This document shows positions 2,672 through 53,129 of a stretch of 64,000 nucleotides of DNA, one piece after another. Below the pieces are notes generated by a model, which had not been told where the DNA came from, made no database searches, and saw only the letters and a list, made by a program, of their open reading frames with translations. The number at the start of each line of letters is the position of its first letter. The stretch's first letter is position 1. Both the position numbers and the translations under genes were made by a program. The DNA is from Polytrichum commune (lineage: Eukaryota; Streptophyta; Polytrichopsida; Polytrichales; Polytrichaceae): positions 24,056,001 to 24,120,000 of the forward strand of contig OX485804.1 of NCBI GenBank assembly GCA_950295325.1. Reading direction: 5' to 3'.

Positions 2672-3645
2672 TGTCGCGCACCTCTCCATGAGGAGTGCCC
2701 GAAACACCATGGGCACAAGGGGGACCCCGGAGTGACACCCGGGACTTGTGGCGCCGTTGGTGAGAGGGCCCAAGTGATCCTAGTGTGAGTGAGGGCCCCG
2801 GGCGTTGGGAACGCCTCCCACCCACGGAGACTAGGAGGCACAAGGGTAAGGCCATGGGCTATGCGTAGCTCATGGCGTGGTGATTCTAGAATGCTCAAGA
2901 ACACCTCAATCGGAGGTGTGAGCTAGGAGTTATGGCCATTTGAGTGGGGCGCTGTCCCGGGACAGCGCCCTGGTGCAGCAGTGCCTGGGAGTGACTCCCG
3001 GGACTGCCAAGGTTCAAAGAGGCATAACGTCCTCATAACTTGCCCAAATGGGGCAAGTGAGGAGTCCATCGGCATCTACGTGAAACGTAGATGAAGATGG
3101 AGTGGTTGGTTGCTAGCCTTGGACATCATACAAGGAAGTTATGATGGTCTGAAGCTGTGGGGGGCTTCTAGGCCCAGCGGCTAAGGGGAAAATGTCCACT
3201 TGGCCCCAACTCTTGGTAGAGAGACAAGAGGTTGGTTGACGGTGGGGTAGGGGCCCCGCGTAGAGTCCTAGAGGCTTATATGGGTGAGGTGGTGTGGCCT
3301 CACCCACCCGAGGCCAAACGGCAAGGCGTCCATGGGCATTGGCCCATTGTGAGGCCATAGTTGCCTAGTATGGTTCGGGTTGTTGTAGTGTTGCTCCGGC
3401 AATGCGATGATCAACATAGGATTTGACTTCCATGGATGGAAGTCCACATCTAAGGAATGGTTACCGATTAAGGGGTGAGTCCCAAAAGCAAAGTAGGAGG
3501 GTTGGTTCCCTCCTATGAGCTATAAGGTCCGGGGTAGGAGGAGCTAACCATTAGCATGGCGGAATGCGAATGGTTAGCGCTCGTAACCTTTGCTAGAATT
3601 GAAAATTGGCAAGATTGTCAAGGGGGGCTAGCAAGAGTTGCGACA
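2672..3645 (+). mobile_element. Solo LTR (family A), 974 bp, with 5-bp TSD ATCCG
   Basis: The element starts TGTCGCGC and ends TTGCGACA, with complementary TGTCGC/GCGACA termini. It is flanked by the perfect 5-bp duplication ATCCG (2667-2671 and 3646-3650), as made by Ty3/gypsy and copia integrases. No internal region is present, so this is a solo LTR left by LTR-LTR recombination. Its right ~630 bp match 15845-16475. A perfect 24-bp palindrome lies at 2947-2970 (GGGCGCTGTCCC and its reverse complement). Confidence 0.88.
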
Positions 3646-4619: not shown

Positions 4620-5574
4620 GCTAGTAGCCTTAAGAGGAGGCCAAGTCTTTTGTACCTTGAGGCTCAAATGAATGGGAGAAATGTCTCATGGGTTAACAAA
4701 GAGGCAAGCCATTCCTTCTTGAGCCCAAAACTCACAAGGGAGTTGGGGCTTGCCGATTGATAGAGCGGGCAAGCCCACCAAGGTGCGGTTTGGAAAAGGC
4801 GAACCGCATGAGACAAAGGAGGCCGCGATGCATGTAACCTTTCAATGTGGGACATTGGATTTTTGTCAAAATTTCACACCGTGTGAAATATATGAAATGC
4901 ATGTCATTATGAAGGTCGCCTTCTTTGAAACTCACATGATAGATGTGAGGTGCAAGCCGGTGTACTTGCGGTGCATTATGATGTGTCATAATGGCAAAGA
5001 ATTGAAGTTCAAATTCACAAGGACTTCTATGGTAGGAGGACCCAAGTTGAATTTGGTTTTAATGAACCAAATGAAAAATAGAAAACATAATGGTCGTGGT
5101 TCAATTGGAGCAACTCCAAGAAACGTATGGGGAGGCTAGGAAAGATGGGCCTCCCCCAAACCACATTGGTGGGATGTTGGTGAGATACAAGGATGTATTC
5201 ACCAATGTGTTGTCCAAAAAGTTACCGTCAAGGAGTGAAAAATAACTTTGCTCAACGAGAGATTGAGTTCTTGAGGTATGTGGTGACAAAGGAAGTTGGT
5301 GGACGAACATGAAAAATGTCAAGGAAATCCAAAAGTAGAATTGGCCCTTGATTCAAAAAAGACTTAGGTCATTTGTTGGCCTAGCCAACTACTACCACCA
5401 CTTCATTCGAGAGTTTTTGAAGGTTGCTAGGACCTTATTCAACTTCTTGAGGAAAATGGCTATCCCAAGAGTGGGATGAGCCTTGTCACCAAGCCTTTGG
5501 GGAGCTCAAGAGCAAGTTCTCTTCACAAGATGTGGTTAAGTTTCCGGGTTTTTGTTATAGAAGTGGGACCATAG
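4620..5574 (+). pseudogene. Decayed Ty3/gypsy protease-RT fragment
   Basis: The first block (about 4650-5090) reads as a retroviral-type aspartic protease region: LSPKLTRELGLPIDRAGKP, an FQCGTLDF motif and a KLNL tail. The usual DTGA active site is replaced by a VNKEASHSF context, so the catalytic Asp is lost. The next part (about 5149-5570) jumps between frames. It shows a YKDVF...LPSR piece, then IEFLRYVVTKE, then LRSFVGLANYYHHFIREF, the connection/RNase H approach of gypsy RTs. The central RT palm with its YxDD box is missing, so there is an internal deletion. It is unlike the methyltransferase element to the right in sequence and belongs to another gypsy family. The relic stops near 5574, about 100 bp before that element's 5' LTR. 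Confidence 0.75.
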
Positions 5575-5674
5575 AGTAATTGAACAGCATAACAATGAGA
5601 ATGAAAAACTTGGTTAGAGGGGCAAAACCCTCGGCTTATATACAATTCTGGCCTCTCGGGTCCAGGGTCCAGCT

Positions 5675-6117
5675 TGTCACGTGAGGTGACATCGGGGGCT
5701 AAGTCACGTCGATTTAGGAGTAAATGGACTCCACTGGGAGTCCATGTGTGTTGGGATGAATAACGGACTCCATTGGGAGTCCTAGTTAGTTGTTCATCCA
5801 CTCCATGGATGAACTCCACATAGGATTGGGGTTGTATGGAGAGGAAGGCCTCTTGACTTGCCATTGTTGTCAAGTCAAGTCTTGTGAGTGTGTTTTGAGA
5901 GAGAGAGAGCTTGTTGTTGCTTTCTCATGGCTATGGTGTAGTAGATTATGAGTAAAGCCTTTGCATTCTTTCTCCACCACTTGCACTCTTGGATTCTCCC
6001 TTCGTGGAGTGAGAGATAGTTTGACTCTTGTGTGTGAATTTTAGAGTTTCTTAAGCTTTGTAAGGAGACATTTTAGTTTCTTAAGCTTGGAGAGAGAAAC
6101 CCTCATACTTGACAACA
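5675..6117 (+). repeat. Candidate 5' LTR of the methyltransferase element
   Basis: It starts TGTCACGTGAGG and probably ends ACTTGACAACA at 6117, followed after one base by TGGCTCAAA, which could be a primer binding site for an unidentified tRNA. Bases 5675-6106 match 15060-15491 without indels. The first 150 bp hold several inverted repeats: TGTCAC/GTGACA, two GGACTCC/GGAGTCC pairs and GTTCATCCA/TGGATGAAC. The right boundary is an inference because the 3' copy is truncated. Confidence 0.7.
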
Positions 6118-6535
6118 ATGGCTCAAATTTTTCATTTTTTGGTTGTATTTCTGAGCTAGAATGGCCCAGTATTGAGAGCAAATGAGTGATCAAGTGTTTG
6201 AAAGCTTAGTTTGTCATTTCTTGCAACCCTCAAGAAGATTTTGAGAGAAATCTTCCCATTTTTCTTTTGTTGTCTCTTTGTGTTTTCTTCAAGTGTTGAT
6301 GGTTGAATCTTGAGATTCCATTTGGTCTCAAGATTCTCAAGTCACATCATTCTTGCTTGCAATTTGTAAAAGCAAAGTTTAATTTTTTTTTAATTTATAA
6401 ACAAACACAAACCAAACTTAAAATCGGAATTTTTAATAATTTTTTTTTGAGCTCCGGAGCTCCACGGACACTCTTGGAGCTCCAATTCTGCACCCCGGGG
6501 GTGGCCAAATCCCGGGCCGGGGCCGGAAAAATCCC

Positions 6536-6631
6536 GGGCCGGGGGCGGGCGGCGCCAGCCGGGCCCCGCGGCCAGGTGGGAGCGGGCCGGGGGCGGGCGG
6601 CGCCAGCCGGGCCCCGCGGCCAGGTGGGAGC
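6536..6631 (+). repeat. 48-bp GC-rich tandem repeat, two copies
   Basis: Two perfect copies with period 48 (starts 6536 and 6584) and a diverging third start at 6632. The unit is almost all G and C and dense in CpG. It lies in the leader of the methyltransferase element, in otherwise AT-rich DNA. Confidence 0.9.
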
Positions 6632-6937
6632 GGGCCAGGCGGGCGGGCGTCGGCCGGGCCCCACCGGCGGGCGGACGCCGGCCAAGCCTGGCTGGCTTAG
6701 GCCTTACTTAAGGTAAGCTAAGCTTACCTTTGTTATTTTGTTTTTTTGTTTTTTTTATTTGTTTGTTTGTTTTTGTTTGTTTGTTATTTGTTTGTTTTTT
6801 TTTGTTTTTTTTTGTTTTTTTATTTAAAAAAAAAACACCCCTTAATTTTTTTAATTTTTTTATAGTATTGTTTACTTTTATTTTCACATTTTTACTTTCC
6901 CCTTTCATACTTGGCATTTGACTCTCACAACTTTGAG

Positions 6938-7225
6938 GTTCAAATTTGGGGGCATACTAGCTCCGATTGGAGTGAAATTTGAGCCTATCTTGTGTGAAAT
7001 TTGCCAAGGAATCCAATGGTGTAATTGGATTGTTGATTGGAATTCAAAATCATTGCTGAAATTATTAATTTCAACGCTGATTTTTGTTTTTGGGAGCAAA
7101 TTAACTCCGAACGGAGTGAAATTTGAGCCTAATTTGTGTGAAATCTTCCTAGGAGTCCATTGGTGCACTTAGTTTGTTGATTGGAGTCCATAATCACCTT
7201 GGAAATGAGCCTTTTCAACGCTGAT
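6938..7225 (+). repeat. 144-bp direct repeat, two diverged copies
   Basis: The marker CTCCGA..GGAGTGAAATTTGAGCC occurs at 6961 and 7105, and CAACGCTGATTTTT occurs at 7073 and 7217; both pairs are 144 bp apart. The copies differ by scattered substitutions. They sit just upstream of gag. Confidence 0.8.
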
Positions 7226-7384
7226 TTTTCATTTTAATTACCAATCTCAAACCTTTGCACAATTTTGGAATTCTGGGGGCATAAACACTTGGCATTTGGC
7301 AAGGGATTGCCATTTAGATAGCCCGCAACAAGTGCAGGTTGCCATTACCTTGTAGATAGTTGCAGGTACTCAAGTGATTATTTT

Positions 7385-10300
7385 ATGGTGCAAACTAGGA
7401 GCCGATATTATCGATCTCCATCACCAGATTACTTGGAGGACGTGCATACCACAAATCGTGAGCCAAAGGCAGATACCAACAAGGCTTTTGAGCCTATTTC
7501 GGCGTTGGACACTACTAGTAGGCTTCGGATTTGGAGTGTCGGCACGTTCGACGAAATGGAGGACGATCGCCACAATTCAGTGCGTGATCGGTTTTCAGGT
7601 CGAGTTGGGGGCATTTCCTTGCCCGATTGGAAACTCCGGTTTCGTACCTGGATTAAGGAGAAACGCCAAAGGTCTTCCAATTTCAATGATTGGTATGCTT
7701 TGAACTTCTGCCCCAACATTTGGAGTATGAGGCACTCCAAACTTATGAACGCTGGACAGAGGGTCATCAGCGACAACTTCGGGAGGTGGAGCAGTATTGG
7801 GAGGCTCGGGTTGAGCTCATTTCAGCCCTTAAGGATGGGGCGGTTGCTACCTTAGCTCCACCCACCTTAAAGGAGGAGGAATCACCGGCGGAGTCTAAGG
7901 ACACGGAACTGGCACTTGGGCCAATGGTGGCTAGCAGTAGCACGGCAACCCTTTCACGGGTGGCACGTGCTACACAGGCAGCATTGACGGCTATTTGTCC
8001 ACCACCTCCGTTTAACCCCCTTACTGAATTTGTCGCACATTTGGAAGTGGAGTATGGTGGGTTTCGGCGAGACCAGATGCAGCGCATCCAGGATTTCCGC
8101 CGAGAGAAGGATGATACTCCACGGACCATGTATACGCGACTCGCGCGATTTGCTGTAGAGTCGGGAGGTGTTTTTGCTGAGAGTCAGCTTGTTAAAATCT
8201 TTTTGTCTAAGATTGACAAGCGGCTACTTGAGTTGGCATCACCTCGGATTATCCTCGACTACGAGGGCCGAGCTACGCTTGCACAAGCGTTTGCCGTGGT
8301 TGAGAGATGTGATCGGGCTCTTTGCCAACATGATGCCACGGATATGGTATCTTGGATGACAGAGAGTCCGAAACCAAGAAGAATTGTCACAGCTACTAGT
8401 AGTTTAGCTGAGACTCAACCCGTCAAGGAGCAAAAGATTTTGCGTTGTTGGGGTTGTGGAGAAGCTGGTCATTCGAAGAATGATCCCAATTGTCCTAAGA
8501 AGAAGAAAACTCAGCCTTTGGGAAAATTAAAACAAAAGATGGAACCAGTAAGGACAGGGGACAATTCTAAGAAGAGACAATTGAAATGTAGCCATTGTGG
8601 TGGCACTAATCACGATGTGGATCATTGTTTCCAACTTCATCCTGAGATGCGGCCTGCCAGTTATGTCACTGGAAAGTCTCCAAGGGAGCAGAGTCTTGAG
8701 GCTAAGATGGCAGAGCTTGAGCAAAAGCTCAAATCTTCTGCATCTTTTGCTCAAATTTCTGAGCCGCATGTGGGTGGTGGCACCTCGGGTTCGGACATGT
8801 ATATGTTTGGAGCAGCCAGAGAGGTGGTGGCGGTGGCTTCTACTCGCTCACAAACATTGGCAGATGCGGTGGCTTCCACGAGTGGTGGTAGCAACGAGGT
8901 GCTACATCCTCGCCATGCCGGACCAACTGATCAAATTGGTCAAGCACGTTTACCTCTTTCATTTGGATTGGTAGACACCACTATTGTTGGGGCTAAAAAC
9001 CCTGTACCTTTGAGAGATGGGGATTCCATCTCGAAGGATGTTACGCAAGCATTGGCATATAAAATTCTCCATATGCCAATTTTCTCGGGTTCGGAGTTTA
9101 TGGCTTCGGATTCCAAGTCTGCTGCAGTTTTTCATTTAGCTGGGAGAATGTTAGCAGGTAAGGTGGATTTGCCATCCCTTCAAGTATCCCAAGCTGTGGT
9201 TGACGTACCTGTGGCTGAGGAGGTGGAGGACTTAGCCAATTTGCGAGCGAGTCTTGCGGATGCGGCGATCATTGTTTTTGGTAAGCAAGCTGATATTCCT
9301 CCAGCATCAATTTCAGCAGTGGATACGTCATTTTCAAATTATGCTTCGGGAGCGGCATATCTTGCAGACATTTCTGCAAGGCCTGCTCGCGAACGCCATA
9401 ATTTGCAACCTGGAGTTGTACGGCTGATGAACGACAAATCTCTGTTTGTCGTTTCACGCACGGATATGCCCACTATCCGTGCTACACCACTTAGAGTTAT
9501 GATGGATTCCGGTGCTCAACCGGTTATGATTGGCAAAGGACTTGCTGACAGTCTTGGATTGACGCCAGCAAGTTTAGATCCTTGTCCATTTACTATTGTG
9601 ACTTCAGTAGGGGGCACTGAACGTGCAACAGGTTACACCAAGGCACCTCTACGTTTGATTTTTCATGTGGGGGCAGGGCCTACTTACACTCATTTATCAA
9701 TGAAGTGTGTTGTTACTAATGCTACCAACTATGATATACTTGTTGGTCAGCAAGCTCTTTACCCACTTGGCTTTGGTTTGGATAATTGGACGGAAGAGGC
9801 ATGGATTAGACCGGGATGGTCCACTGGAGATGGCAGGAAGGTATTTATTCCCGTCACATTTGCAGCCCCTGCTATGACTATGGTTGCGGAGGCAATGTTT
9901 GGTTGCAGCGGTTCAGTTGCAGATTTGCCTTGTGCTCCAGTTTTATTGGAGGAAACAATGGACTACACTTGTAATGCGGCAGAACAACAATTTTTACCAT
10001 CTTTTCAAATTCCTGCTCGACATTTCAAGGATCCACCTCCACCATGGCGAACTCCTAAGGAGTTATCCGACCATTGTCAACACATTGTAGCGGATTTGGA
10101 GCTTGGAGAGGCACCTCCAACTTCATCCTCATTTTCTTTTGCTCAACCCATTCGTTGGCAACCGTCACCTGAAGGTATTGTCCTTGTGGAGATCTTTGGA
10201 GGCATTGGCACAGGTTTGGCGGCAGTATTGGAAGCTGGAATTACAGTTTGGCGATATATTCATGTGGACAATGGGTATGCAGCCAACAGAGCCGTCCGAC

Positions 10301-11400
10301 ACCACATCCAACAATTGTTGTTGAGATACCCCACACAATTGTCAGCCTCTGCCATTCATGGATGTTGTGGTCAACTTCCTCAAGATGTCACTATGATTAG
10401 TGATGAGGATTTGAGAAGGTTGGGCCACGTGGATTTGATTATTGCAGGATGGCCTTGTCAAGGCCATTCGCGGGCAGGAACTGGCCAGGGATTGGATGAT
10501 CCTAGGTCTAGTTTGTTTGCGGATTTGACGCGATTAACGCAATGGTGGTTTACCCACCAATCAACTCCGCCAGGGTACATTTTCGAAAATATACCATTAT
10601 TGGATGATACCCGGCACAAAGTGGTGAAGGATGGTGAGTACATTAACCAAATTCTGGGTACTCCAACATTTCTGGATGCTGCATCTTTGGGATCCTTTGC
10701 TCATCGGCCTCGTTGGTTTTGGACCAACTTGGTATCACCTCGGGTGCTTTCAGCGGCGATTGCCCGCATTCCCCGCCTTATGGATCGCAAGGTGGATGAC
10801 ATTTTAGATGATCATCGTGTTTCCTTGGCAGTTACCAAAGATGACACCTTGCCATTTGCATTAATTAACAAGGTGGGCATTCCGAGTGGTGCACTACCTA
10901 CTTTTGTGACATATCCACAGTCTTTTGCATTTCGATCTCGTGGACCTGGCATGGTTTGGGATTCAAAATTCCAAACTTATAAGGAGCCTACGGCAGATGA
11001 GCGGGAACGCGCCATGGGTTTTCTTACAGGTACCACGGCTGCTCACGGGCTTCAGGAAGGTCAGAGACGTTTCCTATTAGGGCAAGTTATGGATCTTAAT
11101 AGCATTGTGTGGATAATTGGAATTTGTCTTGCTGCTCAACAACGTATGGATGACCAATTGCTTACTCTGAGGGCAGAGAACAATGGTCAGGGGGCAATGG
11201 AGCCGCAATCCAAGGGTCATATTGAGGTCAATGACACCGAGGGATTATTTCCTTTCAAACTTCATGTTGCGGAAGAGCTTCGAGCCCAACGTGTTTTTTC
11301 GGCTTTGGCCCAAGAGTTTGGGAAGTTGGAGGCCCATAAAATGTTTCCACTTCTATTTCTTGGTGATACTTCATATGTGGGTAGCTATTTAGCTACATAA
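7385..11400 (+). pseudogene. gag - protease - DNA methyltransferase part of the polyprotein (one frameshift)
   Basis: Translation should begin at ATG 7385 (MVQTRSRYYRSPSPDY). After NDWYA near 7699 the frame must move by -1 to continue at FELLPQHLEYEALQTYERW. No slippery heptamer is visible, so a 1-bp deletion is likelier than programmed shifting. Numbering from 7690, the gag core is at about residues 100-215. There are two zinc knuckles, CWGCGEAGHSKNDPNC (253-268, long CX2CX4HX6C) and CSHCGGTNHDVDHC (canonical CX2CX4HX4C, about 301-314). The protease has its active site MDSGAQ with Asp606, and the methyltransferase is at about 830-1150. The block ends at TAA 11398, but the same frame continues downstream, so this is probably a nonsense mutation and not the natural end. 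Confidence 0.88.
10150..11130 (+). other. C5-cytosine DNA methyltransferase domain, DNMT3/DRM-like
   Basis: It would transfer a methyl group from S-adenosylmethionine to C5 of cytosine in DNA. Motifs occur in order. Motif I is EIFGGIGTG (residues 834-842, SAM binding). Motif IV is AGWPCQGHSRAG with catalytic Cys923. Motif VI is FENIP with Glu966. Motif VIII-like AHRPRWFWTNL closely resembles the AHRARYFWGNL of DNMT3. A variable target-recognition stretch and TFVTYPQSFAFRSRG follow, then a TADERERAMGF helix typical of the domain's C-terminal part. RRFLLGQVMDLNSIVWIIG sits where motif X (GNSV-like) is expected and lacks the usual Asn-Ser-Val. The DNMT3-type motif VIII and the linear I-to-X order (not permuted as in plant DRM) point to a DNMT3-like origin. 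There is no stop or frameshift inside the domain. Confidence 0.92.
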
Positions 11401-13017
11401 ACTGATTGTAGTGGAGAGGATACGCATTTGGATTCAAGTGCAGATGATGGGGGCAAAGGTGTTGCCCTCTCCACGGACTAGCAATCACAGGCTGTGCTGG
11501 CACCAAGTGGCAATCCTTCTTTGAAGAAGGAAACCACGGAGTTTGACGATTGGCCAATTGAAGTGGGGCCAAAGCTTACTGGTGCCGAAGCACGAAAGGT
11601 ACGGGCATTTATTCGCTCTTACCGTAATTTTTTTTCCTTTAGTCTTCATGATCTTGAAGGATATAAAGGTAAACCTGTTCGTATTCAACTCGAGGACGAC
11701 CACCCTATTTTCAGACGGCCGTACAGACTTAGTACCTCTGAAAGGTTGGGTGTTCAAACTCGATGTCAAGAGTTATTGGCAGCGGAATTGATTGAACTCT
11801 CCAATGGAGAGTATGCTTGTGCCACGGTTATGCCGTCAAAGAAGGATATCTTTGGCAACTGGACGGAAAAACGGATGTGTGGTGATTATCGTCCAGTCAA
11901 CCGCAAGACCAAGTCGGATCGATATCCAATGCCGATGCCGGAGGAGTTGTTTGATGCACTGGGATTTTCTAGAATCTTCAGCACTCTGGATTTGAGGTCT
12001 GGTTATCACCAATTACCTTTGTTGTTGGGTGATCGGGTGAAGACCGCATTTTGGGGAATTGATAAAAATGGCAAGGATCAACTTTATCATTAGAAATTTC
12101 TGCCATTTGGTCTCAAGAATGCACCAGCTGAATTTCAGCGGGCGATGGACCAATTATTGGTTGGTTTGCCGTTTGCTAGATGTTACATTGATGATGTTAT
12201 CATCTTTAGTAATAGTCCACAGGATCATGTGAGACATTTGTAAGCGGTATTTGAACGACTTCAACGGTGGAGACTCCGTTTACATCATGGAAAATGTAAG
12301 TTTTTCCATGATCAATTGTCCTATTTAGGCCACATGATTGTTCCTGGCGGTCTTGGTGTGCAACAGGCGAAGGTGGATGCTTTGCACAAAATTCCCGCAC
12401 CTAGTGATGTACCACGGCTTCGTGCATTTCTAGAATTGGCAAATTATTATAGGAGGTTTGTCAAAAACTTTAGTTTGATTGCCAAACCTCTTACCATTCT
12501 CACGGGGAAAGACCAACCATGGATTTGGAGTCGGGAACAACAACAGGCATTTGATACATTGAAGCAGAGGCTCGGTTCAGCGCCAGTGCTTCGACGCCCG
12601 GATGTGTCTAGAGCTTTTCAATTGCACACGGATTGGAGTGCAGTGGGATTGGGAGCGGTATTAACACAGAAGGATGAAGAGGGAAATGAATATGTGGTGG
12701 CTTATGCATTTAGAAGCAATAATAGTGCTGAATCTAATTATTCTTCTTATGAAGGCGAGGCCTTGGCGGCCGTTTGGGCCATTGCACATTTTCGACCTTA
12801 TTTGTATGGGCAAAAGTTTACTTTGGTGACTGATCATCAGCCTTTAAAATGGCTTATGGAATCAGATAAGCTCACCGGGAAACTTGCTAGGTGGGCATTG
12901 TTACTTCAGGAATATGATTTTGAAGTTGTTCACCGAGCAGGAATTGCCAACTTGGATGCAGACGGATTGTCTCGCAATCCAAGTCCTTCAGATGAGGATT
13001 TAACTGGAGCCAGGTAG
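11401..13017 (+). pseudogene. Reverse transcriptase - RNase H part of the polyprotein, with internal stops
   Basis: This is in the same frame as the upstream block and shows Ty3/gypsy RT motifs in order: PYRLSTSE, KRMCGDYRPVNRKT, FSTLDLRSGYHQL, KFLPFGLKNAPAEFQ, the catalytic CYIDDVIIFS (Asp codons at 12190 and 12193), then SYLGHMIVPGG and LRAFLELANYYRRFVKNF. RNase H follows with LHTDWSAVGLGAVLTQ, YEGEALAAVWA, VTDHQPLKWL and NLDADGLSR, giving the D-E-D-D set. Internal stops are TAG 11479, TAG 12091 (before KFLPFGL) and TAA 12241 (before AVFERLQ), and the block ends at TAG 13015. Each is one transition from a plausible CAA, CAG or TGG codon. The enzyme would copy the element's RNA into DNA in virus-like particles; this copy cannot make it whole. 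Confidence 0.93.
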
Positions 13018-14625
13018 CATGGAAATTGTGATCGTGAGGCAGTTCCGGATTGGCATGCTACCACATATCTCACAATGATGTCGGGATTGGCTGCTGAGAT
13101 CCTTGTAGAAGAACAAGATGAGGAGGTTGATAAATCTCTCGTTGTTAGTGATGTGTGGAAAGACCAGGCGGTCTTGTACAAACTTCAACACGGGATATTT
13201 CCTCTTGGACTATCTGCTATGGAGCGAGATAGAGTTAGTCACCGGATAACAAGGTTTCGTTGGGCAAACAGCTTGTTATTTCGTGTGTGGCCGAACGGAA
13301 CGAGACGCATCGTTCCAAGGCCAGATCAAAGAGCTTCTTTGGTGCGGCAAGTGCACGAGGAGCTTGGACATTTTGGAGTGCGAAGGACGCACTCTATGTT
13401 GCGCAACCAATATTGGTGGACTGGTATGTATCAACAGGTTGCCACTTATGTTTCTCGGTGTGAAGTATGTGACCGGGTCAGGTCAAGTTTTAACACTTTG
13501 TCACCTCAACTTCAGCCTTTACCTATTATGGGCTTGGGATATCGTTGGTCTTTGGATTTTGCCGGACCGCTTACTATCACTCCACGTGGTTCCAAGTATG
13601 TGCTTGTGATGGTGGAGCATTTTAGTAAGTGGATTGAACTCGTGGCTCTTCCCCAAAATTCCTCAGAATTGGCGGCTATGGCATTTCTTGATCGAGTTTT
13701 GGCACGGTTTGGAGCACCTGCAGAGGTGTTGACGGATCAAGGGAGAGAATTCCTTGGATCTTTCGAGGTTTTGTGTACCAAGGCTTTGATTGATCATCGG
13801 ACAACTTCCAGAGATCACCCTGAAGCAGATGGCTTAGCTGAACGAGTTGTTCAGACGGTTAAGCGCGGTTTGCGGAAGTATGGATTGCTTCATGGCAACC
13901 ATCGCGATTGGGACTTGATGTTACCATGGATAGCAATGGGTTATCGTTTCAGCAGGCAAGCATCTTTGGCATCCTATAGTCCTTACCAACTCTTGTATGG
14001 ACGGGAACCAATTTTACCTAGCTCGGTGCGAGAGAAATTGGCTCCCGTGGTAAACTTGGATGATCCAGATGTTTGGGCTCAATGTCTTCATGACCGAGCA
14101 ACGTTCTTCCAAAAGGCCATGCCTATGGCTATGGAGAACTTAAATATTGCTCAACATCGTGATACATTACGGTATGCCCGGATCCGCAGTGGAGCTTATC
14201 GACCTCAAGTTCGTAGATTTTCCAAGGGGGTTTATGTTTACTTACAACGGGAGGCGCCTACGACATTGGATGTGAAGGTTGGGCGCACGATTTTGCGGGT
14301 AAAAGATGTCTTGCCAAGTGGTATATTATTGCTTGAAGGCAAGGATGGACGGGAATGTCGTGAGCATTCAAAGAATTGTGCTCCATGTCACCTTCCTATC
14401 GACGGCTCTGTGCATCCCGAGTTGGCGGTTGTACCACAGGGTTTGCCTTGTTATGTTTGTGGAGAGAAGAAAGGAGTTGCAACAATGTTATTGTGCGACC
14501 AATGTCAACGTGGATGGCACATGGCATGTTTGACACCTCCCTTTTTTACTCTTCCTTCTGGCAATTGGGTTTGTCCTCGTTGTCGGAAAGCCTCTCATTC
14601 CGTGGCCGTTAATGGTCATGATTGA
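13018..14625 (+). pseudogene. Integrase with C-terminal PHD finger (last part of the polyprotein)
   Basis: Counting from codon 13075, the HHCC zinc-binding domain is HEELGHFGVRRTH...CEVC. The integrase core carries Asp161 (SLDFAG), Asp221 (LTDQGREF) and Glu256 (ADGLAER), a D-x34-E spacing one shorter than the usual D-x35-E. A GPF/GPY-like region (KGVYVYLQREA) follows. The C-terminus holds a PHD finger at residues 459-503 and ends at TGA 14623. The block is open but is separated from RT-RNase H by TAG 13015 in the same frame. The integrase would insert the cDNA into the host genome, and the PHD finger may guide it to chromatin (inference). There is no chromodomain. Confidence 0.93.
14447..14583 (+). 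other. PHD finger (C4HC3) at integrase C-terminus
   Basis: The cysteine/histidine ladder is CYVC, then LLCDQC, then GWHMAC, then WVCPRC: C-x2-C, C-x2-C, H-x2-C, C-x2-C. It has the conserved Trp two residues before the last Cys pair. These are the hallmarks of a PHD finger, a reader of histone H3 tails in nuclear proteins. An acidic residue before the third Cys (LLCDQC) and GWH are typical. Which histone mark it would read cannot be told from sequence. Confidence 0.93.
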
Positions 14626-15059
14626 GGATTTTGTGGATGTTTACCACATGTTTTAGTGGTGAAGTTGTTATTTAGTTGGTTGGAAATTTTATGGGATTGA
14701 AAATCACATTGAAAGAGTTATCCAAGAATTCAACATAAATGGTTGAAGGCGATTAAGGATGGGGCTCAAATTGCACCCAGCCTATAGTTCTTGGATTACT
14801 TTCTCAATCATGAGTTTAATTCCCTAGATTATTACTACCCAATTGAATATGTATAGATGTAGCAACAACTTCATCATGTTCAACAACTCTACCGATGAGT
14901 GTGTTTGTTCCTAGCCGATTGGAGGGGCTCCTTATCTGCTAGTGGGGGCACTTGAAGAGGTGGTTGTTTAGCATTTTAGTTTGCTATTTTATTTTGCTAA
15001 TTGATGTTGACGCCGACACTCGATCTGTTGTGTTTAACGATCTTAGTTTACACGACAGC
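14626..15059 (+). other. 3' untranslated end of the retrotransposon
   Basis: No ORF of note. A purine-rich AGTGGGGGCA at 14941-14950 looks like a polypurine tract, but it lies about 110 bp before the candidate 3' LTR start at 15060. The 109 bp between (14951-15059) recur at 15492-15601, so the exact PPT and LTR start are uncertain. Confidence 0.5.
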
Positions 15060-15491
15060 TGTCACGTGAGGTGACATCGGGGGCTAAGTCACGTCGATTT
15101 AAGAGTAAATGGACTCCACTAGGAGTCCATGTGTGTTGGGATGAATAACGGACTCCATTGGGAGTCCTAGTTAGTTGTTCATCCACTCCATGGATGAACT
15201 CCACATAGGATTGGGGTTGTATGGAGAGGAAGGCCTTTTGACTTGCCATTGTTGTCAAATCAAGTCTTGTGAGTGTGTTTTGAGAGAGAGAGAGCTTGTT
15301 GTTGCTTTCTCATGGCTATGGTGTAGTAGATTATGAGTAAAGCCTTTGCATTCTTTCTCCACCACTTGCACTCTTGGATTCTCCCTTCGTGGAGTGAGAG
15401 ATAGCTTGACTCTTGTGTGTGAATTTTAGAGTTTCTTAAGCTTTGTAAGGAGACATTTTAGTTTCTTAAGCTTGGAGAGAGAAACCCTCAT
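15060..15491 (+). repeat. Candidate 3' LTR of the methyltransferase element (truncated)
   Basis: 432 bp matching 5675-6106 with no indels and about five differences, all transitions (G/A four times or its complement, one T/C). It starts TGTCACGTGAGG. The last ~11 bp found in the 5' copy are absent. Instead the sequence joins a second copy of the element's 3' end at a shared CTTGA. Confidence 0.75.
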
Positions 15492-15601
15492 CTTGAAGAG
15501 GTGGTTGTTTAGCATTTTAGTTTGCTATTTTATTTTGCTAATTGATGTTGACGCCGACACTCGATCTGTTGTGTTTAACGATCTTAGTTTACACGACAAG
15601 C
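15492..15601 (+). repeat. Second copy of the element's 3'-terminal 109 bp
   Basis: Near-identical to 14951-15059, with one inserted A near the end (ACACGACAAGC against ACACGACAGC). Both copies are followed at once by TGTC, but by different LTR sequences. Confidence 0.88.
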
Positions 15602-16475
15602 TGTCTTGTTGGGATAGGTCTAGTAACTAGTGTCTCGGGACTTGGACTAATACTATGGCCGAAGCCCGGGTTGTTGGCTCGCAGTCCGAGGTATTTACTA
15701 TTGTGTCAGCCTTGGGCCCGCATGGTGGCGGCTCCATACTAACCTTGGATTAGTTGCCATGTGGGTATAATCAATGCTAATTAGACTCTGGTCTAGTTGA
15801 CGGTTAACCTAGGTTGCCTAGGTACTTATCCGTTATCTTAACATGAACAAGCATAACTGCCTCAATACTTGCCCAAATGAGGCAAGTGAGGAGTCCATCT
15901 GCATCTAAGTGAAACTTAGATGAAGGTGGAGTGGTCGCTTGTTAGCATCAAAGATCACATAAGGAAGTTATGATGGTATGAAACTGCTAGGGGCTTCTAG
16001 GCCCAACGGCTAAGGGAAAATGTCTACTTCGCCCCAACTCTTGGTAGAGAGACAAAAGGTTTATTGACGGTAGGGTAGGGGCCCCGCCTAGAGTGCTAGA
16101 GGTTTATATGGGTGAGGCGGTGTGGCCTCATCCACCCGAGGCCGAACGGCACAGCCTTTATAGGCAATGCCCAATGTGAGGGCATAGTTGCCTAATATGC
16201 TCCGGGTTGTTGTAGTGTTGCTCCGGCACCACGATGATCAACATAAGATTGGACTTCCATCCATGGAAGTCCACATCTAAAAATTGGTTACCGATTAAGG
16301 GATGAGTCCCGAAAGAGCAAAGTAGGAGGGTTGGTTCTCCTCTCATGAAGTATAAAGTCCGGGGTAGAAGAAGCTAACCATTAGCATGGCGGAATGCGAA
16401 GGGTTAGCGCTTGTAACCTTTGCTAGAAATGAAAATTGGCAAGATTGTTAGGGGGGGCTAGCAAGGGTTGCAACA
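15602..16475 (+). repeat. LTR related to family A (874 bp), right end TTGCAACA
   Basis: From about 15845 to 16475 this matches the solo LTR at about 3015-3645, including the terminal run before TTGCRACA. The left ~240 bp do not match. Its left limit is placed at TGTC 15602, where the retrotransposon's duplicated 3' tail ends. No target duplication is visible: CAAGC stands before it and CTATC after it. Confidence 0.65.
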
Positions 16476-29779: not shown

Positions 29780-32624
29780 GTGTGCTAGTGAAGAATGTCA
29801 CCTAAAATCATAACAATATAGGTACTTATGCAAGAAAAATTAAAACACATCTTCATCACATGTACAAGGCGCGGTAGCTTATGTGAAATCTATGAGGGAC
29901 AATGTTATAGTGAGAAAAAATTGTCACATAGGAGTGTTACCCTCATCATTTAGCATGAACAACTTGATCCCCTCTAGGTTTGTGGTTGATTCATCTCAAA
30001 TAAAACTCACTAGACTTATTTAGAGTCTTTAAAATCAAATTCAATGTCAAAGCAACTAAAATAAACTTCCTTTAGATTGCATCCTATTTTGGGGCTTTTA
30101 TGTTGGGTGAATGAGAGGTATGTCCATATGCAATAATTCTCTTGGGCCCATTTAAATTTTTGTAATGGTCACCTATGCAGAGTTGGTTTAGATTTGTGTT
30201 CCAAACTTTCCCCCCCAAAAAAAATGTCGCATTTTGAAATTTGGGTACTCACTGATTTAGGAACAAGACCTTTGTTCATGTGCCCCATTGTTGACATACT
30301 GTTTAAGTTATCCATAAAGTCTCTCCAAGATGGATGAAACCGTGGGTTACGTCCTTCTTTGAGAAATCTTTCTATTAGAACCTTGTTAGCTTGTCATACT
30401 GAAAAACCTATTTTGAAAGTTGGATGAAACTTTTGGGACCTCCTCTTTCCATCTCCAAAATTCTTAGAGATTTTTAGGATCTAAAACAAGGTATGTGTAT
30501 AAAACCCATTGTATTAAAATCTCGGATTGACCTATGCAAGGCTACCTTGACCCACCCATCCTAGTAGGCCAAGCTTGAAAGCCAATTTTTAATAGCCCAA
30601 CACCACTCTTTGTGTATGGTAATTTAAGCATTAAGAAAACTTGGGTGACTTGTGTTAATTCTCATAAACTCAAGGTTTGGGACTAAACCCACGGTTTCAT
30701 CTCCTTTACTTTACAAATAACTCTATTAGATAGAGTTTCTAAATTTATGTTCCATTATGTTTTTTTAAATTTGGCCACCTATGTTCTTGGTGCAATTTGA
30801 ATGGAGGGTCTTTAAAAAGAACTTGATATTTTGGACACATATTTTAAGAACTATAGTTGTAAAACTATTTTAACAAAATTCTTTGTCTGCTTAATATAGA
30901 CACATGTCCCTAAGTAGTTTGTACTTGCCCACAACTGGGGAAATCTTGTCACTACAGTAGTTAGAGACGAGTTGGTTGAGTTTGAGAAATAACCAGTTCA
31001 AGAACATTTCTGAACATTTTAGAGGAATTTGTTAGATACATCCTAAATAAACTAGAACCCCGTGGCCGGGGAAGGAAGTTCTAGCTTTATCTACAATTAC
31101 GATTGATAGCCATGTCTACCTCTCTTTTTATTTTTATTAACTTTTTTGTTTGAGAAATTTATAAAGTCAAGTTTGAGGAAAAATTAAAAATAAATAAAAA
31201 TAGTGATCATATAAACATGTATTTTATGAAGGGTACATAATATTCACATTATGCAAAGGATGTACTAATTTATGGAAAATTTGAAGATTCCTCCATGTTG
31301 TAAATACTCAGCCAGGTGATACCATGTGTCCTCGGTCTTTCAACAAATAGTTTGCATTCCCATAAAGAGGTTCATATGTGCAAATTGACGATTCACTCCA
31401 ATTGTTCTCTCATAACTATATATAGTTTCATAACTTGAAATTGTCAATCAATTCAAGAATCATCAATGCTAGCCTCAACGAATAGCCAAAGTTAGTGAAA
31501 CCCATAAATCTACCTCAGACTTCTAAATTATCATAAACTCTAAAGAAGGAAACGATGGACAATCCTTCCTTGCATGAAACCCACAAACGTCAATCCTTCA
31601 CGTCTTCTCCTTTTTTTACTTCTTAACTTTCTCCCCCCCCCCCCCCCCCCCCGCCTCCCCCCCTTAAGATTGTTTCTTCATCCACAAATTCCGTATGAAT
31701 TCCATCCAAAAAGACACTCCTTTAATCAATTACTTTTCATCAAAAAATATTTAAAAATTTCCATATGGATTTATATTGTATCATGCATGTGTGCATGTAT
31801 GGCATGAGGTCTTCTTTGACAACACTCTAGAGAAATTTAGAGAATAAAGAAACACTTGAAAAATAAATCAACATGTAAACTAGTTGGACTTGGAAACACT
31901 TAGATCTCAATCAATTTGGCCCAAAATCTCCCAAAGACCGGTATTTGCATTCCAAACCTTTTATTTATTTGAAGTGTTACTTTACGAGAGTTATTAACTA
32001 TTTTAAGATCAACACACATTACCAATTCACATACAAGTGTCTCCTCTATGTGAATATGTAATAGATTTGGTTCTAGATTGGATACAATCTTTTAAGGATG
32101 TGGCTTGCAAGTCCTTTCCTATTTTGCAATACAAATTTAAAAGTATCACACATGGGGGAATATTTAAAAATAATGCCCATAATGGTTCACTTACATTGGC
32201 ACAACTAACTTAGATAGCCTAGTTCAATATTTCTTGCAAACATTGGTGTCATTTTGGAATTAGCATTCTCTTAAGGGTTTAGATTGGCTCCAAATTGTCC
32301 TTCTAACTGAAAATTAAATATATTTGAACAAACTACTTGTTTCAAAATAATAAGGGATGTGCACTTGTGGGGTCAAAAAACATCAATCGACAACAACAAA
32401 AGCAACAACATAACAACCACAATTTTGAATGTGTGTATTCCATGTTTGTCAACCAACATATTTGTGTGGTTTTGTGATCTAGTGTACATCATAGTGACAG
32501 TTGAGATTGTCCAAATTCATGTATGAATCCAAAATATACGTAAATTCAAGTTTTCTCACAGGCCAATGAAGCTACTAGACAATGAATGACCTCCAAGACC
32601 AAAGACTTCAAAATCGAGTCATCT
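29780..32624. other. 2.8 kb without recognisable genes
   Basis: AT-rich, only short ORFs. A run of 20 C (31633-31652) and a dispersed repeat shared with 18380-18590 (pieces at 30955-31055 and 31865-31945) are the only notable structures. The two pieces are split by about 800 bp, perhaps a later insertion. Confidence 0.5.
31633..31652. repeat. Poly-C tract of 20
   Basis: Uninterrupted run of C followed by GCCTCCCCCCC. Similar shorter runs are at 17545-17558 and 50627-50639. Length may be an assembly estimate. Confidence 0.9.
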
Positions 32625-33025
32625 TAGGCCGCTCGCCCACTAGATTCTAGATAATAGTGAGTTGAAGGTGTTTGCACGTAGTTAAGCACAAGCTGCCATC
32701 CAACCACATTATGGCGGTCCACTAGAATGTGGAGAGCCTTGAACATTAGTTGCTAGACTTCCATGTCCCCACTAAAGAATCTTTAGTCTACAAGTGCCAG
32801 TTACCAAATGATTATGAAGACTGAAGAGATACAATATTGATATGGAACTCCATCCTTGTTAATTGGGAAGATGAAGTCAATAGGGGGGCCCGGATTTGAG
32901 AAGGTGAGAGTAGCTAGTTGGCACATATGAACCCTACCCCATCAAATTCCCTCTACATTAGGGCGGGTTTGTCCTTGTTCGCACTAGAATCTAGTGGGCA
33001 AGTGACCTACATGGAAACTCACCCT
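32625..33025 (-). mobile_element. MITE, inverted copy of the element in the 684-bp array
   Basis: Reverse complementing this stretch aligns it with 50932-51294. Shared marks are TTCCATGTAGG..C..GCCCACTAGATTCTAG at one end and CTAGAATCTAGTGGGCAAGTG at the other, with GTTTGCACGTAGTTAAGCACAAG inside. The ends are inverted repeats of each other. The left terminus is worn and no clear target duplication remains. Confidence 0.7.
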
Positions 33026-35752: not shown

Positions 35753-38194
35753 CTACTTTTTGTACAATTTGATGGGCCGCATCATGTCGTTGTCTTCGTG
35801 ATCCAGAATATGGCAATGCCACACATAGCCCGGCCCCGAGGTGGGGTCGAAGGGGAATTTCCCGTTTCGGCCACGCTGGGAAGTCCACTTGAGCATGAGG
35901 CGGGTGACATGGTTAGGGAGAGAGACGATGGTGTCTTTCCATCCGACCTGGTTGGCAGATGGCCCAACGGGTGGGCCAGTAAAGCAGCTCTCCGGGCCAT
36001 GGTAGGAGTGGTTGAATTGAGTGCAGCCACCTGACTGCCAGAGTGTGAGATTGAATGGCTGCTGATTGATGAGCTTGAATGGCACGAGATGGATGTGCAT
36101 GGGATGTGCATCGGGGGTGAAGTTGATGAACTCCCAAATCTCCGTGTCACCGACATATGGCGTCTCGGTGGGAGGATCCATCCATGTGAGGTTGGAGAGA
36201 TATGAGCCAGTAGGGTTACCCAACGCATCGTCATCTTCAAACATAAATTTTGTCCTCCTCTTGTTCACGTGCTCGGAGCTCAACGGAGCATCTGCCTCTC
36301 GCAATATTGCAGGAATCTTCGCCATAGCCGTCTCATCATCAGGGTGGTGGTGCTCATCTTTGACGATGAATTTCATCACTGCGTTGGTGGAGGGTGGGCT
36401 GTTGGCAGGGTCCCCGGCTGGGTAAGGCGCAGCACCGGAGTTGTTCATGATGACTTCGCATCCCGGGACTTTGGAGAAGTCGATTATGAAATCCACCCGC
36501 TCGGCCGGTGCAACCAACATTTTTTTGAGGGTTTGTGATTTCTCCAGAAGCCCTCCGTCGGTGCCGATCTGGATGAAGCTAAGCTTCGCATTGTTCAAGG
36601 AGAATTCGAAGAACCGAGCATTGGCAGCGTTGAGGAGACGGAACCTGTACTTCCGGGGCTTGACATGGAGGTAAGGCCATGCCTTGCCGTTGACGATGAT
36701 TGTGTCACCCCAATACTCGGGACACCAGTGAGGGTGATTCTTCACGGAGTCACCCACATTGGGGAAATTGATGGACCCGTTGTGGAAGAACTGTTTGTCT
36801 TGCAGCAGCAGCACGACCTCATACTTCTTGGTGGGCATCCAAGCGGGTGGCTTCTCCTTGGACCGGATAAGGTAGACCCCTGTCAACCCAGACAGCACAT
36901 TCAGCCTTGATGTGCCGAACGCATGGTCATGGTACCATAACATGCTTTCCCTCTGCGCATTGGCGTAGGTGAAGTTGTTTGTGGAGTAGGCATAGCCATG
37001 GTCGCCCATGGCAGTGTACCATGAGTCTGGGTAGCCGTCGGAGGTGCTGTCCACCTCGGCCCCATGGAGATGTACCACCATTGGCACTCCCCCGTGCTTC
37101 GGCGCGGCTTGCATCAAACTCGGGTCGGTCGTTAACATGTGGTGGCTGTCCATCAGATGATTCTCCCATCGAACATGGGACACCTTGTCCTGCATAGCCA
37201 CCAGCATTGGGCCGGGATACGTGGCCGTCGCTTCGGTTCTTCCATAAGCATATAGTGTTGTGGGCGGTAGATCCCGGTGCAATTTCTGCAACAGAGTACA
37301 GACACAAAGATTTGAATTCAAAACTCGATTAGTCAGGATGAGTCAGCTGGAAACCTTAAGTTGTGGGAACTTTTTCATCTTAGATCACACCTGACTGATA
37401 CAGTAATTCACGGAGTGATCTCAGATCCTGGTAATGGGGTTTTACATATCAGAATACACAATCGTAAAGAACTGAAACGCATCTGCTTCGAAATACAGGT
37501 TGTGACATACTCTGTACACCCTTATTTATTGGGTAAAACGTAGCCAAAAGAAGTTAAAGATTGGTTGGCTTTCATTAACAGAGTGCTAAATGTAGAAAAT
37601 TGTAATTGAGCTACTACAATGCCGAAACTTTGTCGACGAAGCCGTGCATTATCATGTGAAAGCTCACTTAAAACATACTGAACTCCCAAAAATCCAAGTT
37701 CAGCCTCTGATCCGGCTGGTGGATGTTCCATACCCATTCGAGGGATTTGCAACTGTCGTAAGGTGTAAGTTGCAAAAACTGTCGAATAGGCATGGATACC
37801 CATTGACATAACGTCAGGAGTGACGGGAGAAGCCGCCATAAAACTTCCAAAATGGCGCAACGCCATGTTTGAGGGAGAGACATATATGTAAGCAAACACC
37901 GAGAGGATTATTTCCTATCTTTAGAAGGAAGGTTAATGAAGGTGTGCTTACTTGTTGGATTTTGTAGGCTCCCAGGGTCAGTTGCTTGCCGTGAGAGATC
38001 CGTATTTTCTTGAGGGTGGGTAATTTATCAACGAATTGTTCAAGCGAAGGCGAGGGAGCCAGCTCTTGGCAGATGGAAACTGGGGAGTCGAGGTCTGCAG
38101 ATGCGTAATTTGTCTGCAGTAATGAGCAGCAACTGCAGGCGAGCAACACGATCAATAGCTTGCCAAGAGGCTTCGTTGTACTCCTTGACCCCAT
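35753..38194 (-). CDS. LPR1-like: LPR1/LPR2-type multicopper ferroxidase (2 exons)
   Basis: Exon 1 is 38194-37952 (81 codons, donor CAA|GTAAGC). Exon 2 is 37285-35753 (acceptor TTGCAG|AAA, phase 0). Together they give 591 residues, close to Arabidopsis LPR1 (about 581). Residues 1-33 form a signal peptide with a hydrophobic LLIVLLACSCCSLL core, so the protein is secreted to the wall. Copper ligands are HLH at 153-155, WYHDH with H200 and H202, HPMHIH at 475-480, and HCHILDHEDNDMM with H571, C572, H573, H577 and axial M582. LPR1 oxidises Fe(II) in the root apoplast and takes part in low-phosphate root growth arrest; here that role is by homology. The family resembles bacterial CotA/bilirubin-oxidase-like proteins and is thought to have come from soil bacteria. 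No stop or frameshift is seen. Confidence 0.93.
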
Positions 38195-53120: not shown

Positions 53121-53129
53121 AACCTCCTC

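What the first reader, a model, noticed from the sequence alone, without database searches (positions are those of the whole stretch)
10150..11130. A C5-DNA methyltransferase encoded inside a Ty3/gypsy polyprotein
Between the protease (Asp606) and the RT, in the same open frame, sits a complete methyltransferase: motif I EIFGGIGTG, catalytic PCQ (Cys923), ENI (Glu966), DNMT3-like AHRPRWFWTNL and the C-terminal helix motif. Retroelements are normally targets of DNA methylation. One that carries the writer could methylate its own cDNA or new copies, hide from other defences, or change host methylation. The seen part is the motifs and frame; the role is inference. Comparable cases are, from memory, known in dinoflagellates and a charophyte.
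Basis: partly seen in the sequence, partly recalled or inferred. Interest (0 to 1): 0.95.

Follow-up and report, generated by a model that had tools for sequence, protein, structure and literature searches.

The report
Retrotransposon family carrying a DNA methyltransferase
A copy-and-paste jumping gene present in more than a hundred copies in this genome (probably a moss) carries its own DNMT3-type DNA-methylating domain, which likely methylates the element's new DNA copy before it inserts; such elements were known from some algae, and this one shows a new layout.

Summary

The element is larger and stranger than reported. It spans 5675-15598, has split direct repeats (A, coding, B-A-B) and ends in TGTCACG...ACGACA, with exact 4-bp target duplications in 15 of the 16 copies whose two ends were found (20 fetched). 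It encodes a DDE integrase followed by a PHD finger. The methyltransferase is the last domain before a UAG-CARYYA stop (40 of 40 loci read: two subfamilies plus another lineage); RT to PHD follow in the same phase, so readthrough is predicted. This copy is damaged; its methyltransferase domain is open.

Relatives occur in Marchantia, Calypogeia, Closterium and chlorophytes, where the domain lies after RNase H. The closest described element is KnitGypsy-Dnmt3 of Klebsormidium (2018), with the same repeat arrangement. So: a new variant of a known kind. The likely role is methylation of the element's own DNA before integration; no activity was tested.

The parts
5671..5674 (.). 4-bp target-site duplication AGCT, left
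   Evidence: identical to 15599-15602
5675..6106 (+). Repeat A1, 5' end of the element, begins TGTCACG
   Evidence: 5 substitutions in 432 against A2; ends fixed by target duplications
7385..9450 (+). gag region with two zinc knuckles (8446-8472, 8587-8613); its N-terminal part (start MVQTRSRYY) is in another phase than the rest, so it is broken in this copy
   Evidence: limits approximate
9430..9789 (+). Aspartic protease (Asp606)
   Evidence: Pfam PF13650, PF13975, both below cut-off; motif; limits approximate
10168..11139 (+). DNMT3-type C5-cytosine methyltransferase domain, open in this copy
   Evidence: PF00145; AlphaFold model of 10126-11200; DNMT3A/B folds over model residues 15-338
11398..11400 (+). 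TAA stop of this copy only among those compared
11479..11487 (+). TAG CAATCA: conserved stop with CARYYA context, predicted readthrough site
   Evidence: 39 of 39 loci plus L084
11482..12093 (+). Reverse transcriptase, part (frame interrupted in this copy)
12244..13017 (+). RT connection and RNase H
   Evidence: PF17917 5e-38, PF17919 1e-34
13018..14625 (+). Integrase (H2C2 and rve, DDE type) and C-terminal PHD finger
   Evidence: PF17921 6e-18, PF00665 2e-13, PF00628 1.8e-9
14939..14950 (+). Polypurine-like tract CTAGTGGGGGCA just before B1
   Evidence: role inferred
14951..15057 (+). Repeat B1
   Evidence: no substitution in 107 against B2
15058..15059 (+). GC between B1 and A2 in ACGACA-GC-TGTCACG
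   Evidence: same in all 16 copies with both ends and in L084
15060..15491 (+). Repeat A2
15492..15598 (+). Repeat B2, 3' end of the element, ends ACGACA
15599..15602 (.). 4-bp target-site duplication AGCT, right

Best explanation
This is a damaged copy of a multi-copy Ty3/gypsy-type retrotransposon with split direct repeats, whose gag-protease frame ends in a DNMT3-type cytosine methyltransferase domain that likely methylates the element's own double-stranded DNA before integration. The domain lies just before a UAG-CARYYA stop. Readthrough of that stop is predicted, so that Gag-protease-methyltransferase would be the common product and the RT-RNase H-integrase-PHD extension the rare one; the methyltransferase would then ride in the particle at Gag level, beside the new cDNA. 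The repeat layout (A, coding, B-GC-A-B) is a circular permutation of an ordinary B-A LTR cDNA. I infer that the cDNA closes into a circle and that the integrase opens it at ACGACA-GC-TGTCACG and joins it to the target with a 4-bp stagger. Shown: fold, motifs, copies, stop context, repeats, target duplications. Inferred: readthrough, packaging, the circle, methylation of it, and the benefit (passing as host DNA, or setting the chromatin state of the new copy).
For: DNMT3 fold and motifs. Catalytic Cys kept in 148 of 149 homologous domains, ENV Glu in 148, motif VIII Arg in 148 and 147. Purifying selection: dN/dS 0.12 between subfamilies against 0.09 for RT, and 0.26 against 0.23 within subfamily II. 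122 scored copies. TAG-CARYYA in 39 of 39 loci and in L084, which is otherwise open from its start to the PHD; four subfamily II copies have that one stop only from methyltransferase to PHD. A-coding-B-A-B with 4-bp target duplications in 15 of 16 copies. Related SymbioDIRS DNMT3 domains methylated CG de novo in yeast (PMC5890265). Pairwise C-to-T differences among 20 copies are highest at CG (3.7%), then CHG (3.0%) and CHH (2.4%; A-to-G 2.3%), a weak sign that copies have been methylated, by whatever enzyme.
Against: No activity, expression, particle or circle was seen here. The closest tested domain, KnitGypsy-Dnmt3, did not methylate yeast DNA (called inconclusive by its authors, since human DNMT3B failed too). 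Nine of 88 clade members in the search that did not use the domain lack it in the protein seen; at least four of them (P0131, P0145, P0153, P0191) have room for it, and so do three stray contigs (L081-L083), so it is not indispensable. In chlorophytes the domain is in Pol, not at Gag level. Its dN between subfamilies (0.28) is higher than that of RT (0.11) or integrase (0.07). SymbioLINE-Dnmt carries a DNMT without DNA made ahead of insertion (PMC5890265).
Confidence: 0.5

Rival explanations
1. The methyltransferase acts on host chromatin in trans, for example at insertion sites read by the PHD finger, or damps the element's own expression so that the host tolerates it.
For: A PHD finger (often a histone reader, established for the domain family) stands at the integrase end here and in 71 of 88 clade members. 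PMC5890265 discusses slowing of transposition and effects on the host methylome.
Against: The domain is predicted to be made with Gag, not with the integrase-PHD part, in the bryophyte-type layout. No methylome was available.
Confidence: 0.2
2. The methyltransferase modifies RNA, such as the genomic RNA or the primer tRNA in the particle.
For: It would sit with Gag next to RNA; PMC5890265 suggests RNA as a target for SymbioLINE-Dnmt.
Against: The fold and motifs are of DNMT3, a DNA enzyme.
Confidence: 0.1
3. The domain is a DNA-binding or structural part that no longer needs catalysis.
For: About half of the homologues (68 of 149) have Glu in place of the Pro before the catalytic Cys.
Against: Cys, Glu and Arg of the active site are kept in 147-148 of 149.
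Confidence: 0.08
4. The methyltransferase entered this one insertion by later rearrangement.
For: None found.
Against: 122 scored copies in one genome; relatives in green plants and algae.
Confidence: 0.01

Closest known systems
KnitGypsy-Dnmt3 of Klebsormidium nitens (de Mendoza et al. 2018, PMC5890265; sections 9-11 and search passages read; figures not held)
   Same: Gypsy domain set with a DNMT3-type domain, intronless copies, purifying selection, and repeats arranged as in DIRS elements, as here.
   Different: Described in the Pol polyprotein of a charophyte; no leaky stop, PHD finger or target duplication is mentioned in the passages read ('PHD' occurs 0 times). Here the domain ends the gag-protease frame in a probable moss.
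SymbioDIRS-Dnmt3 of Symbiodinium (PMC5890265, passages and sections 9-11)
   Same: DNMT3 domain in a retroelement with A-coding-B-A-B repeats.
   Different: Encodes a tyrosine recombinase; the element here has a DDE integrase and 4-bp target duplications.
DIRS1-like elements (PMC3266345, passages read)
   Same: RT-RNase H-methyltransferase with a proposed circular intermediate.
   Different: Adenine-type methyltransferase (stated in PMC5890265), tyrosine recombinase, inverted repeats, no target duplications.
Animal DNMT3A/DNMT3B
   Same: Fold, motif order and the AHR-R-FW-NL motif.
   Different: About 25% identity in the structural alignment; PCQGHS instead of PCNDLS; Pfam shows no ADD or PWWP in the frame; part of a retroelement protein.

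Membership tests
C5-cytosine methyltransferase, DNMT3 type | Motifs I, IV (PC), VI (EN), VIII and X in the unrearranged order | tested here: met
C5-cytosine methyltransferase, DNMT3 type | Closest in sequence and fold to DNMT3 rather than to other solved C5 enzymes | tested here: met
C5-cytosine methyltransferase, DNMT3 type | Groups with DNMT3 in a phylogeny | tested here: inconclusive
   Only one human DNMT3A fragment was in the tree; it fell inside the methyltransferase-before-RT group on a long, unsure branch. No DRM, CMT or MET rows were used.
C5-cytosine methyltransferase, DNMT3 type | De novo DNA methylation | not testable with these tools
   needs an assay
Ty3/gypsy (Metaviridae) elements | Order protease, RT, RNase H, DDE integrase, with gypsy-type RNase H | tested here: met
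Ty3/gypsy (Metaviridae) elements | A pair of ordinary LTRs at the two ends | tested here: not met
   A, coding, B-A-B; hence 'gypsy-type by its proteins' only
DIRS order | Split direct repeats, A-coding-B-A-B | tested here: met
DIRS order | Tyrosine recombinase and no target duplication | tested here: not met
   rve integrase and 4-bp duplications in 15 of 16
KnitGypsy-Dnmt3 type | Gypsy proteins, DNMT3 domain and DIRS-like repeats together | tested here: met
   against the description
KnitGypsy-Dnmt3 type | Sequence relationship to the Klebsormidium element | not testable with these tools
   its sequence was not among the hits; the one named Klebsormidium protein, P0191, has no such domain
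TMV-type readthrough stop | UAG-CARYYA with an open frame downstream, conserved | tested here: met
   the TMV motif is recalled
TMV-type readthrough stop | Measured readthrough | not testable with these tools
   needs a reporter or proteomics

The most novel reading that the evidence does not exclude
Methyltransferase capture goes with circular replication. This green-lineage gypsy group has lost ordinary LTRs, makes a double-stranded circle, lets a DDE integrase open that circle at a built-in ACGACA-GC-TGTCACG site, and methylates the circle with a Gag-level DNMT3 before insertion. The same pairing of split or circular repeats with a methyltransferase in DIRS1 (adenine), SymbioDIRS (DNMT3) and KnitGypsy (DNMT3) would then be one repeated solution to protecting extrachromosomal DNA, with SymbioLINE-Dnmt the exception to explain.
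Probability: 0.25. Interest if true: 0.92.

Novelty: new variant of a known kind. Interest (0 to 1): 0.74.

Why it matters
Retroelements are the classic targets of DNA methylation, so one that codes for the writer turns the usual picture round. The 2018 cases were few. Here the same kind of element appears as a high-copy family with recent insertions in a probable land plant, with relatives in liverworts, a desmid and chlorophytes; [quoted passage not shown] The conserved UAG-CARYYA stop gives a testable reason why the enzyme would be made in excess over RT and integrase. Split repeats with target duplications give a testable model of integration from a circle.

Tried and rejected
Single-copy rearrangement: rejected. 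Ordinary LTRs: first assumed, rejected when the flanks of further copies and the 4-bp duplications fixed the ends. Origin from the host DRM: L037 is a DRM by its rearranged motif order, with 24% identity to the domain over one stretch. An intron-bearing host DNMT3 did not appear with a 165-residue human DNMT3A probe, but short exons could be missed and only 150 of 299 candidates were scored. Recombination between subfamilies as the cause of the jump in identity from about 62% (methyltransferase) to 93% (integrase): not supported, since dS is above 1 on both sides. DNA of relatives in IMG/VR: two protein scans confirmed nothing, and an alignment scan gave one contig with a 30%-identical methyltransferase and none of the other domains. 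Genome contigs: the first scan confirmed nothing; the alignment scan gave six loci, of which L084 was informative, L081-L083 showed no domain, L080 is a fragment and L085 matched only RNase H and integrase weakly. Print: eight answered searches listed no paper whose title or abstract describes a moss or liverwort element of this kind or one with this stop; the listed papers were not read beyond the four cited, and papers outside that library were not seen. Not tested: whether this genome holds close pol relatives without the domain, and a genome-wide count of B-GC-A junctions (those searches did not complete).
Full report
WHAT WAS CLAIMED AND WHETHER IT IS THERE. The 7690-11400 frame contains gag with two zinc knuckles, an aspartic protease (Asp606) and a C5-cytosine methyltransferase (PF00145, 2.1e-10), in that order. 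The RT is not in the same open frame: in this copy a TAA at 11398 and a TAG at 11479 stand between, although the reading phase is the same. RT, RNase H and integrase-PHD follow in 11482-14625. The window copy is damaged (gag start in another phase; five in-frame stops between methyltransferase and PHD, the conserved TAG counted); its methyltransferase domain is open throughout.

IT IS A FAMILY. The genome (407.8 Mb, 64 contigs, C1-C7 of 42-78 Mb) gave 122 scored matches of 86-100% identity out of 579 first-look candidates; 15 of the 122 keep a 1386-codon open frame with no stop in the domain (my count). A Pfam search scored 123 of 353, a DNMT3A-fragment search listed 148, 150 of 299 being scored. 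Their union is 238 loci, one of them the DRM; 116 are not in the first list. The lists are capped, and most loci were not read. I read the 20 best (L001-L020, L001 being the window copy) and 20 that are not (L021-L040). Of the latter, two are subfamily I, one is the DRM, and 17 are a second subfamily: typically methyltransferase 62%, RT 83%, RNase H 88%, integrase 93% identical to the window. Between subfamilies dN/dS (Nei-Gojobori, 22 against 16 copies, dS above 1) is 0.12 for the methyltransferase and 0.09 for RT; within subfamily II 0.26 and 0.23; within subfamily I 0.45 and 0.47. The domain is constrained much like RT, but its dN between subfamilies (0.28) is higher than that of RT (0.11) or integrase (0.07).

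A CONSERVED LEAKY-TYPE STOP. In 39 of 39 loci with both domains (L001-L040 without L037), the last stop before RT is TAG followed by CAATCA, CAACCA, CAATTA or CAGTTA, all CARYYA. CAATTA is the tobacco mosaic virus context (recalled). Linker length differs between subfamilies (as a rule 297 against 249 nt) and the flanking bases differ, so these nine bases are kept. In two loci (L027, L038) the methyltransferase is in another frame. Of 18 sequences covering methyltransferase to PHD, four (L022, L030, L034, L039) have that one stop and no other; the rest have further stops or lost frames. A stray contig, L084 (in a cyanobacterial MAG record, evidently a third lineage: methyltransferase 67%, RT 80%, integrase 95% identical), is open from its start to the PHD with exactly one stop, TAG CAATCA. 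A given stop would have this form and context at about 1 in 1500 by chance (my calculation, even base use).

SPLIT DIRECT REPEATS. One repeat A (432 bp) stands at the 5' end; at the 3' end stand B1 (107 bp), GC, A2 and B2. I fetched the ends of the 10 plus-strand copies among L002-L020 and of 9 plus-strand copies. With the window that is 20; four were dropped because one or both ends were not found. Of the 16 left, 15 have an exact 4-bp target duplication outside TGTCACG...ACGACA (L041/L042 does not), and in all 16 the B1-A2 junction is ACGACA-GC-TGTCACG. A and B differ in length and sequence between the subfamilies, but these ends do not. L084 has the same junction, and its contig ends in 127 identical bases: graph collapse of a repeat family or a real circle, which cannot be told apart here. 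A1 and A2 show no substitution in 6 of 16 copies (5 of 432 in the window copy), so some insertions are recent. PMC5890265 describes A-coding region-B-A-B for SymbioDIRS-Dnmt3 and the same arrangement as DIRS for KnitGypsy-Dnmt3.

HOW IT LIKELY WORKS (inferred). A polypurine-like tract lies just before B1. Ordinary reverse transcription would give B-A ... B-A; the inserted form A ... B-A-B is that molecule closed into a circle and reopened at one B-GC-A site. The GC between CA and TG resembles a retroviral two-LTR circle junction (recalled). The methyltransferase, made at Gag level if the stop is read through only rarely, would meet this DNA in the particle. Methylation there could let it pass as host DNA or fix the state of the new copy. 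The PHD finger may steer insertion. A weak hint that copies are methylated: pairwise C-to-T differences among L001-L020 are 3.7% at CG, 3.0% at CHG, 2.4% at CHH.

RELATIVES. Two searches with the domain gave 53 and 69 proteins; one with RT to PHD, without the domain, gave 763 at E<=1e-30, of which the best 120 were listed. Named hosts with the domain include Marchantia polymorpha, Calypogeia fissa, Closterium, Monoraphidium and Haematococcus; in Tetrabaena, Pleodorina, Astrephomene and Gonium the matches are partial or weak. In the pol tree (FastTree, 142 rows) 122 form one clade (0.98). The domain comes before RT in 28 of these rows (24 database proteins, 4 own copies), after RNase H in 85, and is not seen in 9; the 85 fall in one group of 88 (0.90), with a domain-less Klebsormidium protein beside it. 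The domain tree (101 rows) separates the two positions with moderate support (98/79 for the before-RT group), but the human DNMT3A fragment falls inside that group on a long, unsure branch. Among 88 clade members in the list found without the domain, 79 have it; of the 9 without, four start within 150 residues of RT, one has a weak trace, and four have room but no domain. This fits one old gain, a later move and some losses; two gains from related sources are not excluded.

NOVELTY. The kind is known since 2018. New here, as far as eight searches of the held library show, are a high-copy family in a probable land plant, the UAG-CARYYA stop, the PHD finger, the target duplications, and the two positions of the domain across green lineages. 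The host is named by inference only: a DRM gene, liverwort relatives and seven large contigs suggest a moss; no tool named it.

Noticed in passing
P0033, P0048 (C-terminal ends, after the PHD finger): These algal polyproteins seem to carry a second, Rossmann-type methyltransferase-like stretch (DPFSGAG ... TSPPF in P0033), seen by eye; related C-terminal tails matched in other proteins by BLAST.
   Followed up: partly
L080-L084: Eukaryotic-type retroelement contigs are binned in bacterial and archaeal MAG records, a contamination signal.
   Followed up: partly
L081-L083: Related RT-RNase H-integrase-PHD elements with only about 180 residues between RNase H and integrase and no methyltransferase found.
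   Followed up: partly
3022-3645 and 15851-16475; 5318-5455: The element lies between two 87%-identical direct repeats, and a short match to a gypsy Pol protein lies just upstream (43%, 1.8e-5): it may be nested in an older element.
   Followed up: partly
50934-53132 and 32624-33024: Head-to-tail repeat with a period of about 684 bp, and an inverted, more diverged relative 18 kb away.
   Followed up: no
44001-48000: Strong GC skew (about 0.5) over 4 kb.
   Followed up: no
35753-37342 (minus strand): A 529-residue intronless frame with three multicopper oxidase domains.
   Followed up: no
149 homologous methyltransferase domains: In 68 of 149 the Pro of the catalytic PC motif is Glu (WECQD), unusual for C5 enzymes as I recall them.
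   Followed up: no
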